DNA of 64,000 nucleotides from Lacrimispora celerecrescens (GTDB lineage Bacteria > Bacillota > Clostridia > Lachnospirales > Lachnospiraceae): contig NZ_JPME01000013.1 in NCBI RefSeq assembly GCF_000732605.1, positions 1 through 64,000 on the forward strand. The letters run 5' to 3'. A program made the position numbers and the translations under genes. Shown here piece by piece: positions 44,405 through 55,505 of the stretch. The stretch's first letter is position 1; each line of letters opens with the position of its first letter. Under the pieces are notes generated by a model. The model worked only from the letters and a program-made list of their open reading frames with translations. It was not told where the DNA came from and did no database searches.

Positions 44405-44424
44405 CCTGCAAAAGAAGCGCCCTT

Positions 44425-44521
44425 CGGGCATACCTTTAAGCCCAAATAGCGTGGGCTAGAAAGCGGAACGCCTTCAGGCATACCTATATGCCCAAATAAC
44501 ATGGGCTAGAAAGTGGAAAGG
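44425..44521 (+). repeat. Two copies of the hairpin-purine element
   Basis: Copy 1 has AGCCC-AAATAGCGT-GGGCT (44439-44457), then AGAAAGCGGAA. Copy 2 has GCCC-AAATAACAT-GGGC (44490-44506), then TAGAAAGTGGAAAGGAG. Each is preceded by GGCATACCTWTA; in copy 1 the upstream GGGC could also pair with the same GCCC, giving mutually exclusive hairpins. On the plus strand, the same sense as the adjacent genes. Confidence 0.8.
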
Positions 44522-49768: not shown

Positions 49769-50398
49769 TTATTTAAAAATGATGTAATTTTTCCCTTTTG
49801 CTGTCTGAACGGTATAGTGATCCTTTATAGATACATTCTTGGATGTAAATAAAAGTTTTCCTTGGGTTTGTATTGTCACCGGTTGGGGGGTCTCTACGAC
49901 GATGGCAAAACAGTCTCCTTTGTTGGATAATGCTTTTTTTTCTGCTAGTTTTCCATCGGAGGCTTTTTTAAAGGTGACTCCTTCTGACTCACTCTGTTCC
50001 AGGATATCGGACACACGGGTCACGGTAATGGAATCTACCTGGTTTACTTTATCCTCGTATTGGGAAGTAAAACCTGCTAAGTCACTTCCTGATGCATAAC
50101 GGAAGACCATCTTGGCATTTCCGTTTTCTAAAGTGCAGGAATCCAGGGTTACCGATCCTTGACCATGGGTCTCGTTATATCCGGTAACAGCTTCTTCCAG
50201 ATAGGCTTTTAATTCATCTGCACGATAGTAATCTTGTTGTGTGTAGGTTTCTACCGTGGCGGTCTGAAGGGCTCCTTCTTCTGTTATATATATTCTGCTG
50301 CTCTCCGTATTCATGGTGCCGCCTCCGCTTCTGCCTAAGCAGCCCGTTAACATTCCGGCGGCTAGAAAGGCAGCCAGAAAGGCTTTCTTTTTTTTCAT
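49769..50398 (-). CDS. Lipoprotein of unknown function
   Basis: 209 residues. Lipobox LTGC with Cys20. The mature part has a helix-rich first half ([23 protein letters not shown]) and a beta-rich second half (LTFTSK-type strands, ending [13 protein letters not shown]). I do not recognise the family. The start at 50398 follows GGAGGG by 7 nt; the longer frame runs into the tandem repeat array and is rejected. Between recO and glyS, co-directional with both. Confidence 0.7.
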
Positions 50399-50461
50399 AC
50401 TTTTCCCTCCTGCTTTGAAATTGGGGGTGGCGGATTGGGGGAGTTGCAGTGAAGATCGCGG

Positions 50462-50600
50462 AGCAGACCGTGAAGCGCGGTGCAACCCGTGAAGCCGCAG
50501 TGCAGCCCGTGAAGCCGCAGTGCAGCCCGTGAAGCCGCAGTGCAGCCCGTGAAGCCGCAGTGCAGCCCGTGAAGCCGCAGTGCAGCCCGTGAAGCCTGTG
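50462..50600. repeat. 20-bp tandem repeat array
   Basis: Unit TGCAGCCCGTGAAGCCGCAG is exact at 50501, 50521, 50541 and 50561, with one change at 50481, a partial unit at 50581 and a degenerate unit at 50462-50480. The unit matches the 5' joint plus first arm of the structured element that follows, so the array probably grew by slippage from it. There are no spacers, so this is not CRISPR. Confidence 0.9.
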
Positions 50601-50712
50601 GCTTCACGGGCTCACGGGCATTCGCCCTATGAATCAGGGCACGAGAAAATTTTCTTATGTGCAAGCACAACGAAAATTTTCTCGTACCCTGATTCGCACT
50701 GCTCATTGCATT
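50576..50712. repeat. Structured intergenic element, copy 1
   Basis: Outer pair GCAGTGC (50577-50583) / GCACTGC (50696-50702). Hairpin 1: GCCCGTGAAGCC / GGCTTCACGGGC (12 bp, 3-nt loop). Joint CACGGGCATTCGCCCTAT. Hairpin 2: 24-nt arms 50631-50654 and 50672-50695, one mismatch, with apical loop TTATGTGCAAGCACAAC. Then GCACTGCTCATTGC. It lies between recO and the lipoprotein gene. Confidence 0.85.
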
Positions 50713-50739
50713 CTTGAACATTATACCAAACCCCACCTG

Positions 50740-51387
50740 TCATTTCAATAGTTTCCATCCAGTCATGGTGTGTAAAATCTCTAGCGAATGGAAATTTTTG
50801 TCCACATAACGTTTTTTATTAATTTCCACGCAGCGAATAAATTCCTCCAACACTGGTTCTGTAAGCGTAAAGGTATATAGGTGTTCTGCAGGTGAAACAA
50901 TTACATATTCCCACGCATAACTTGCTGAATCACTGACAGGGCAGGGTGGGGTTTCTGTGTATTCTCCGTTTAACACCATTGCTTTTAGTTCAAAAATCCT
51001 TTGAACCAGCTCATTTTTCAGGGCTGGTTTTAAGAGCGCCCGTATGGACTGGTAAAGTAGCTTTAGAAGACCTGTACCGTCCATATTCTCCCTGGCGTAA
51101 TAATCTGCCAGTTCCAGGAAATAGGAACCGTAGCAGGTTCCTTCCACATCCAGGGACAATTCATCAAAATAATTGGTGATCTCCGCCGACCTAAGAGTAT
51201 AGGAATCCCTTCCCTCATACAGGGAAAACTGCCCGAAGGCAAAGGGGCGGCTTACCGCCATAAGCGGATTGCCTGGTCTTCTGGCCCCTCTGGCAAATGC
51301 GATGATCTTTCCTCTTTCCCTGGTGAGTATTACAAGGCGCTTATCCATTTCTCCAACCGGGGATACCCTTATTACCATCCCCGTCAT
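50740..51387 (-). CDS. recO: DNA repair protein RecO
   Basis: About 215 residues. RecO helps RecF/RecR load RecA and anneals single strands. The N-terminal OB fold has TGMVIRVSPVGEMDKRLVILTRERGKIIAFARGARRPGNPLMAVSRPFAFGQF, followed by a helical domain. The C-terminal zinc-finger cysteines found in many RecO proteins are not present. The start is ambiguous: an ATG at 51387 has GGAAG about 8 nt upstream, while the in-frame TTG at 51405 has a poorly spaced site. Between era and the lipoprotein/glyS genes; era-recO-glyS is a common order in this group of bacteria. Confidence 0.88.
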   Translation of the reverse strand: MTGMVIRVSPVGEMDKRLVILTRERGKIIAFARGARRPGNPLMAVSRPFAFGQFSLYEGRDSYTLRSAEITNYFDELSLDVEGTCYGSYFLELADYYARENMDGTGLLKLLYQSIRALLKPALKNELVQRIFELKAMVLNGEYTETPPCPVSDSASYAWEYVIVSPAEHLYTFTLTEPVLEEFIRCVEINKKRYVDKNFHSLEILHTMTGWKLLK

Positions 51388-55319: not shown

Positions 55320-55361
55320 TCTGCGTTTTTTCCTCCTGCATGTTCTTATTATACGTGAGTT

Positions 55362-55495
55362 CGCAGTGCGGCAAGCGATTCTGGAAGATTCGCTTGCCCA
55401 CGAGCATTCGCCCTATGAAATAGGCCATGATAAGATTTACTTATGTGCAAGCACAACGTAAATCTTCTCCTGTCCTATTTCGCACTGCTCATTGC
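55362..55495. repeat. Structured intergenic element, copy 2
   Basis: Outer pair GCAGTGC (55363-55369) / GCACTGC (55482-55488). Hairpin 1: GGCAAGCGA / TCGCTTGCC. Joint CACGAGCATTCGCCCTAT. Hairpin 2: GAAATAGG/CCTATTTC and AAGATTTAC/GTAAATCTT around the apical loop TTATGTGCAAGCACAAC, identical to copy 1. The stems differ from copy 1 but remain paired. Located between the YdcF-type gene and the M16C peptidase gene. Confidence 0.85.
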
Positions 55496-55505
55496 TAGCG
55501 TGTAA

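What the first reader, a model, noticed from the sequence alone, without database searches (positions are those of the whole stretch)
50576..50712. Two-copy structured element with covarying stems and a conserved apical loop (copies at 50576-50712 and 55362-55495)
Two unlinked gaps carry the same design: outer pair GCAGTGC/GCACTGC, hairpin 1, a conserved joint (CACGRGCATTCGCCCTAT), hairpin 2 with identical apical loop TTATGTGCAAGCACAAC, and conserved 3' end GCACTGCTCATTGC. Hairpin 1 is GCCCGTGAAGCC/GGCTTCACGGGC in one and GGCAAGCGA/TCGCTTGCC in the other; hairpin 2 arms also differ (GAATCAGGG versus GAAATAGG) yet both stay paired. Constant joints and loop with changing but compensated stems is the mark of selected structure, either RNA or a DNA hairpin used by a transposase. 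I do not recognise a named family. No transposase is nearby.
Basis: seen in the sequence. Interest (0 to 1): 0.78.

Follow-up and report, generated by a model that had tools for sequence, protein, structure and literature searches.

The report
Mobile-type hairpin repeat beside promoters
Two odd folded sequences in this bacterium are copies of a dispersed repeat found in many genera of its family; it often sits right behind promoters as the likely start of messenger RNA, and its paired arms seem to be kept matching partly by DNA copying slips rather than by selection alone.

Summary
Both gaps hold one ~140-nt element that folds into a closing stem plus three hairpins. The genome has 18 strong and three weak copies. 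The covariance model finds the family in 25 of 25 same-genus genomes and in 119 of 299 genomes of the same family (one per genus).

The biological strand is probably the reverse of the one read. On that strand the element starts about 3 nt after a -10 box at 54 of 96 positions, and its long arm ends in a strand-fixed C-YY-G (CUUG-type) loop. Window copy 2 is an insertion: empty in 18 of 25 same-genus genomes.

No Rfam family matches the window at its cut-off. The nearest is Clostridiales-1 (RF01699), below threshold.

The covariation alone does not prove selection on structure. Wobble pairs are about as rare as A.C mismatches, unlike 6S RNA, and hairpin-1 loops flip to their exact reverse complement between orthologs (3 of 18 at 2.1% divergence). 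That is a mark of template-switch copying in DNA.

Best reading: a MITE-like structured repeat that became part of mRNA 5' regions. Transcription, mobiliser and function are inferred.

The parts
50575..50716 (-). copy 1, whole element (sense = minus strand); between recO and a predicted lipoprotein gene
   Evidence: CM R1, 163.8 bits; RecO by Pfam, lipoprotein by eye only; the position is shared with 5 other species of the high-copy clade
50577..50583 (.). copy 1 closing stem, one side; pairs with 50696-50702
50696..50702 (.). copy 1 closing stem, other side
50584..50612 (.). copy 1 hairpin 1 (variable arms; 3-nt loop at 50597-50599; this loop flips orientation in some ortholog groups of the family)
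50616..50627 (.). copy 1 small hairpin, sense GGGC-GAAT-GCCC
50631..50695 (.). copy 1 hairpin 2; conserved apical part at 50655-50671 (sense loop type C-YY-G)
50703..50716 (-). copy 1 conserved 5' leader (sense), probable transcript start (inferred)
50720..50725 (-). -10 box TATAAT preceded by TG, 3 nt before the element in sense
50743..50748 (-). -35-like TTGAAA, 17-nt spacing; overlaps the end of recO; kept in 6 of 6 aligned species
   Evidence: the only promoter-like site found in 50380-50800, 11 of 12 matches
50463..50596 (.). 20-bp x 6.8 tandem array built from the element's 3' end (sense)
   Evidence: family-wide pattern
55361..55502 (-). copy 2, whole element (sense = minus strand); between a DUF218 gene and an M16/PreP-type peptidase gene; no promoter-like site found beside it
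   Evidence: CM R1, 146.8 bits; Pfam; insertion against 18 empty orthologous sites
55370..55398 (.). copy 2 hairpin 1
55441..55457 (.). copy 2 apical part of hairpin 2, identical to copy 1
55363..55369 (.). copy 2 closing stem; pairs with 55482-55488
55482..55488 (.). copy 2 closing stem, other side

Best explanation
A short, non-coding, MITE-like dispersed repeat of Lachnospiraceae. SHOWN: it occurs at unrelated loci in many genera; copy 2 and the trpS copy differ from empty orthologous sites; it sits about 3 nt after a -10 box at just over half of the positions examined, and mostly upstream of a co-directional gene; at trpS the promoter also stands at sites without the element; its 3' end, not its 5' end, is often repeated nearby; its hairpins are sometimes lost, leaving the leader as a scar. 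SUPPORTED: the arms stay complementary partly through palindrome-directed template switching in DNA (loop flips, no wobble excess), with constraint on joints, apex and probably on pairing. INFERRED: the empty sites are the older state; it is transcribed as the first ~140 nt of the downstream mRNA (or between cistrons), where a stable capped fold would mainly affect mRNA stability or translation; it was moved in trans by an unidentified enzyme with a preference for AT-rich or melted sites such as -10 boxes.
For: Copies and spread. Fold and covariation. Empty sites: copy 2 absent in 18 of 25, present in 7 of 25 (stop-to-start distance 34-36 nt v 187-189). trpS copy: present in 6 of 24, altered in 1, absent in 17, of which 16 keep TTGACA/TACAAT. 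-10 box (one mismatch allowed) 0-8 nt before the start: 17 of 28, 15 of 29, 22 of 39, against mean counts of 1.6, 2.2, 4.5 in shifted windows; the offset is exactly 3 nt in 15, 12 and 11 of these; 26 of the 54 also have a -35-like site. Copy 1 has an 11-of-12 promoter match, the only one in its gap. Downstream gene co-directional: 19 of 21 own copies, 25 of 28 in other genera. Loop: 95 of 106 and 51 of 58 rows C-YY-G, none seen of the opposite type, 11 and 7 unresolved. 3' duplication 25 of 97, 5' 0 of 97, shuffled 0 of 97. A terminator-like site within 60 nt after the element: 0 of 96 positions by a strict rule, and none in either gap. Loop flips: 15 of 106 differing ortholog pairs, reverse-only 2, complement-only 1; 3 of 18 between two species at 2.1% flank divergence. 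GU test with 6S control. Scars. Template switching is described as homogenising arms and inverting spacers, and as maintaining RNA hairpins (PMC8604942 and PMC8794818, abstracts read).
Against: No mobilising enzyme was found, and none was searched for as a protein family. Target duplications are weak: same-locus flank match 5.32 v 4.90 in the clade (70 of 2000 permutations reach it), 4.39 v 4.39 in other genera; in G130/G293/G252 5.36 v 4.58 (0 of 2000), but the only strong cases are three G130 loci. 42 of 96 positions have no -10 box, and copy 2 has no promoter-like site. A cruder first gene call on a mixed set gave the downstream gene co-directional in 51 of 66. Loop reverse complements are almost as common across unrelated loci (12% of differing pairs) as within ortholog groups (14%), so that comparison alone shows no enrichment. 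Half-changed pairs outnumber double changes between orthologs (551 v 321), as point mutation plus selection would also give. Small-hairpin loop and unpaired apical columns diverge 7-8%, close to the stems. No expression data.
Confidence: 0.6

Rival explanations
1. A cis-regulatory leader RNA (riboswitch-, protein- or attenuation-type) copied in front of many genes and kept by selection for regulation.
For: Co-directional downstream gene 19 of 21 and 25 of 28; preferred -10 spacing; strand-fixed loop; apical stem and joints slowest to change; the recO-lipoprotein and cdaR-ftsE positions hold the best match in 5 and 11 of 17 low-copy genomes of the genus and recur in one of 29 other-genus loci each.
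Against: The downstream genes looked at share no theme (Trp/Tyr-type tRNA synthetase, FtsW/RodA type, PreP-type peptidase, CbiC, M18 peptidase, histidine kinase, DnaB_2, sugar-binding protein and others). No terminator-like platform. At one locus the hairpins are lost in all four species fetched, in three different forms. Very few G.U pairs.
Confidence: 0.15
2. A purely DNA-level hairpin or cruciform element recognised by a transposase or recombinase (REP/IS200-IS605-like logic); transcription is incidental.
For: Pairing shows no consistent strand bias and is nearly all Watson-Crick; dispersed copies and empty sites; polar 3' duplications.
Against: No inverted apical loop was seen although hairpin-1 loops invert; -10 boxes at a preferred spacing and gene orientation are unexplained. 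No enzyme tied to it (none searched for).
Confidence: 0.15
3. A stand-alone trans-acting small RNA family, as Rfam types Clostridiales-1.
For: -10 box right at the 5' end in 54 of 96; many copies per genome; sub-threshold full-length match to RF01699, typed sRNA.
Against: No terminator-like site within 60 nt after the element in 96 positions or in either window gap; often short distances to the next start codon.
Confidence: 0.08

Closest known systems
Clostridiales-1 RNA (Rfam RF01699; Weinberg et al. 2010, PMC2864571, table passage read)
   Same: Closing stem with several hairpins, a long arm capped by GCUUGC, a last hairpin with GGAG/GGAA-like internal loops (by eye, some genera), dispersed copies in Lachnospiraceae; 4 of 17 family loci examined, window copy 2 among them, match it over positions 1-166 of 166 at 33.7-36 bits (the L107 alignment has many non-standard pairs, and L054 showed but not).
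   Different: Below the 48-bit cut-off; no match at E <= 0.001 in the window's genome; a larger element with TGATG.../...CATCA terminal repeats and target duplications; R1 scores its 30 loci at 22.3 bits at most.
BOX elements of Streptococcus pneumoniae (PMC3049150, passages read)
   Same: Short intergenic structured repeats with a part present in variable number (boxB), found in 5' and 3' extensions of transcripts.
   Different: No sequence relation was tested; BOX is over-represented between convergent genes there, this one lies mostly upstream of co-directional genes; the repeated part here is the 3' end.
Correia-type MITEs (PMC10969869 and PMC3049150, passages read)
   Same: Short non-coding repeats, mostly just upstream of genes, tied to sigma-70-like promoters.
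   Different: Correia elements have 26-bp inverted repeats and carry promoters; here the clear terminal pairing is the 7-bp stem, and at trpS the promoter is also present at sites without the element.
Template-switch-maintained hairpins (PMC8794818, PMC8604942, abstracts read)
   Same: Compensatory multi-base change, arm homogenisation and spacer inversion.
   Different: Those studies treat RNA genes and yeast coding DNA; here the signal recurs over dispersed copies of one bacterial element.

Membership tests
Clostridiales-1 (RF01699) | covariance-model score at or above 48 bits | tested here: not met
   No gathering match in the window; no match at E <= 0.001 in G000 (stricter filters); best sub-threshold 36 bits, in 4 of 17 loci
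Clostridiales-1 (RF01699) | closing stem with GCUUGC-capped long arm and further hairpins | tested here: met
   Single-sequence folds and full-length sub-threshold alignment
Clostridiales-1 (RF01699) | TGATG/CATCA ends (as seen at its loci here) | tested here: not met
   Ends differ; read by eye
MITE | short, non-coding, dispersed, with empty orthologous sites | tested here: met
MITE | terminal inverted repeats | tested here: inconclusive
   7-bp closing stem only; outer short repeat seen by eye in single copies
MITE | target-site duplication | tested here: inconclusive
   weak in the clade (70 of 2000), none in other genera, three G130 loci strong
MITE | related autonomous element with a transposase | not tested
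   No transposase family search was run; 21 extra places of a 5'-end motif (the list is capped) look like truncated copies, scars or chance matches; reading frames around them were not analysed
REP / RAYT or IS200/IS605 derivative | Y1 (HUH) transposase and its hairpin-guide rules | not tested
   no search made
Riboswitch or other metabolite-sensing leader | consistent functional theme of downstream genes | tested here: not met
   downstream genes of 13 own copies and one other-genus copy among the proteins scanned
Structured RNA evolving under RNA pairing rules | G.U excess over A.C on the sense strand | tested here: not met
   no consistent excess (2.3 v 1.2%, 1.4 v 2.0%), 6S RNA as control (17.2% v 0.4%)

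The most novel reading that the evidence does not exclude
A mobile structured element that targets transcription bubbles: it enters single-stranded DNA exposed at -10 boxes of working promoters (and at other AT-rich or melted sites such as T-runs and stop-codon surroundings), thereby becoming the new 5' end of the host mRNA, and afterwards keeps its fold through template-switch copying of its own palindromes rather than by base-pair selection alone. Clostridiales-1 would belong to the same wider superfamily.
Probability: 0.2. Interest if true: 0.85.

Novelty: new variant of a known kind. Interest (0 to 1): 0.6.

Why it matters
Covariation is the standard proof of a functional RNA. Here is a widespread bacterial family in which very strong covariation comes with marks of a DNA copying mechanism (no wobble excess, exact loop inversions between near-identical species), so the usual test can be misled, and genomes with about 20 copies offer replicate loci for measuring that process. 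It also links a curated 'small RNA' (Clostridiales-1), whose loci look like transposable repeats, with an uncharted relative that supplies the probable 5' end of many mRNAs, cell-division and translation genes among them, across many genera of one bacterial family.

Tried and rejected
Named Rfam family: none at gathering threshold in the window; the sub-threshold microRNA rows I take as long-hairpin chance matches. Leader peptide: a short frame opens at the conserved ATG in sense, but its following codons vary between copies, so it was dropped. G.U strand bias as a way to find the RNA strand: no consistent bias; the first count used a structure derived from one strand and was redone on both. 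Target duplications as a general rule: not supported. Autonomous element for this family: 21 extra 5'-end places examined (20 fetched, one) look like truncated copies, deletion scars or chance matches. Autonomous element for Clostridiales-1: two pairs of its terminal repeat were listed as reading frames and, by eye, enclose host genes and no transposase; a third fetched stretch (L480) was not examined. Paper searches for this family or for Lachnospiraceae hairpin repeats gave nothing relevant in the titles and abstracts listed (one search gave only Weinberg et al. 2010; open-access library only). Rows set aside: opposite-strand matches; gapped loops; L012 (no end motif; it appears to lie in coding sequence); 4 of 30 Clostridiales-1 loci at contig edges; L289 left out because it is the same place as L109, but both are counted (24 of 96 distinct). 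L008 lacked the end motif and was kept from then on. The row list is capped, so copies below its cut were not seen and ortholog groups may be incomplete. Rows of the fitted alignments A4 and A5 are not independent (A4 holds the tandem units of L191). Organism handles: G001, G022 and G018 were matched to named records by equal contig length; the genus name Lacrimispora and the gene names trpS, cdaR, ftsE and groEL are recalled from the sequences, Pfam giving only the broader families.

Full report
What is there. Both gaps hold the same ~140-nt element. The first motif scan found 16 places in the genome, 15 of them family members. A covariance model from those 15 (R1) finds 18 strong and three weak copies in the genome, matches in 25 of 25 same-genus genomes, 119 of 299 genomes of the same family drawn one per genus, and 12 of 291 drawn from the class, of which 5 lie outside the family at 38-67 bits. 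The large searches use stricter filters and cap the candidates scored per genome, so they are lower bounds.

Covariation. On 58 members 90.9% of pair cells are standard pairs (shuffled 62.1%), 46 of 50 pairs have two-sided changes, and the covariation score is 0.693 (shuffled 0.171, slid 0.123 or less) (that alignment was fitted to the model). The unfitted own-genome alignment has 28 of 50. The structure claim holds.

Which strand. Some of the 42 without a -10 box follow a stop codon closely, and a few follow a T-run (by eye). The next gene downstream is co-directional in 19 of 21 own copies and 25 of 28 in other genera; an earlier, cruder gene call on a mixed set gave 51 of 66. The apical loop is C-YY-G in 95 of 106 and 51 of 58 rows; none of the opposite orientation was seen, 11 and 7 rows were not resolved. 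Window copy 1 has TTGAAA-17-TATAAT, the only promoter-like site in its gap (11 of 12 matches), kept in 6 of 6 aligned species, with the -35 overlapping the end of recO. Copy 2 follows a stop codon and has no promoter-like site. No terminator-like site was found in either gap, nor within 60 nt after the element at any of 96 positions by a strict rule.

Mobility. 18 of 20 copies of the window's genome share their place with at least one other species of the high-copy clade. Copy 2 is absent from 18 of 25 same-genus genomes, where 34-36 nt separate the stop codon from the peptidase start, and present in 7, with 187-189 nt (alignment of one empty site). At trpS the element is present in 6 of 24, altered in 1 and absent in 17; 16 of those 17 have the promoter TTGACA/TACAAT just upstream of the insertion point, so the promoter does not depend on the element (the seventeenth shows unrelated upstream sequence, and one genome has no trpS match). 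Other genera have copies at loci of their own. Two positions look ancient: the recO-lipoprotein site (window copy 1) and the cdaR-ftsE site hold the best match in 5 and 11 of 17 low-copy genomes of the genus, and recur in one of 29 other-genus loci each. Target duplications are not established.

A polar oddity. Part of the last 45 nt of the element (sense) recurs within 250 nt downstream at 25 of 97 loci; the first 45 nt do not recur upstream (0 of 97), nor does a shuffled control (0 of 97) (L109 and L289 are one place, so 24 of 96).

DNA or RNA evolution? In 6S RNA of 30 genera of the family, folded on its sense strand, G.U pairs are 17.2% and A.C 0.4%. In this family, on pairs common to folds of both strands, they are 2.3% and 1.2% (58 diverse members) and 1.4% and 2.0% (105 near members); on the sense fold alone 2.3% v 1.2% and 3.8% v 1.7%. 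Between orthologs, hairpin-1 loops differ in 106 of 169 pairs; 15 of the 106 are exact reverse complements, 2 are plain reversals and 1 a plain complement. Two species with 2.1% flank divergence show 3 full flips in 18 ortholog pairs. Against this, loops of unrelated copies are reverse complements almost as often (12% of differing pairs v 14%), so the case rests on the close pair and the reversal controls. Double Watson-Crick changes grow with divergence (1.0% of pairs at 2.1% flank divergence, 6.4-10.3% at 10-15%), while half-changed pairs rise from 4.8% to 6.4-13.4%. Template switching is described as homogenising arms and inverting the spacer (PMC8604942, abstract) and as making and maintaining RNA hairpins (PMC8794818, abstract and start of the introduction). 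Constraint is still visible: apical stem 1.5%, joints 3.0%, closing stem 4.2%, small-hairpin stem 5.5%, leader 6.0%, against 9-10% in the two large stems and 41.6% in the hairpin-1 loop; but the small-hairpin loop (7.4%) and unpaired apical columns (8.0%) are close to the stems. The hairpins are dispensable at some sites: at one locus four species keep the leader but have lost hairpins, in three different forms, and the window genome has a leader-only scar after a probable groEL (orthology and gene name by eye).

Known families. Rfam has no gathering match in the window. Clostridiales-1 (RF01699) matches 4 of 17 loci examined, window copy 2 among them, over its whole length at 33.7-36 bits against a cut-off of 48, each time on the sense strand proposed here. 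Its own search finds 129 of 299 family genomes over the cut-off but no match in the window's genome, and R1 scores 30 of its loci at 22.3 bits at most. I treat the two as likely relatives, not as one family. Weinberg et al. 2010 list Clostridiales-1 with 'y' for RNA and 'n' in the next two columns, from Clostridiales and human gut (table passage only; that the first 'n' means not cis-regulatory is recalled).

Mechanism, with limits. I take it as a MITE-like structured repeat that landed beside promoters and gene ends and now forms mRNA leaders or intercistronic segments. A stable fold at the very 5' end would most simply change mRNA decay or translation; that step, transcription itself and the enzyme that moved it are inference.

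Noticed in passing
L192-L221 (RF01699 loci): Clostridiales-1 'sRNA' loci look like a transposable repeat: TGATG.../...CATCA inverted ends and flanking A/T-rich direct repeats; same-locus flank match 5.85 v 4.81 shuffled (0 of 2000) in 26 of the 30 loci (4 at contig edges left out).
   Followed up: partly
L191, R1 matches 1142-2121 (G008): An element followed by at least seven near-identical 140-bp units holding its 3' half but not its 5' arm.
   Followed up: partly
L387, L390, L396, L397: One locus where four species keep the element's 5' leader but have lost hairpins, in three different forms (L390 and L397 alike).
   Followed up: partly
L261, L264, L266, L278 (G130): A 12-16-nt motif (AAATTATGGTTTA type) on both sides of nearly identical copies, with further shared sequence beyond, as if the mobile unit were longer there.
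   Followed up: no
L295, L298, L299 (G252): A GGCC-rich short palindromic sequence runs directly into the -10 box of three copies, suggesting a second repeat family nested upstream.
   Followed up: no
window 44421-44518: Two-copy 50-bp tandem repeat.
   Followed up: no
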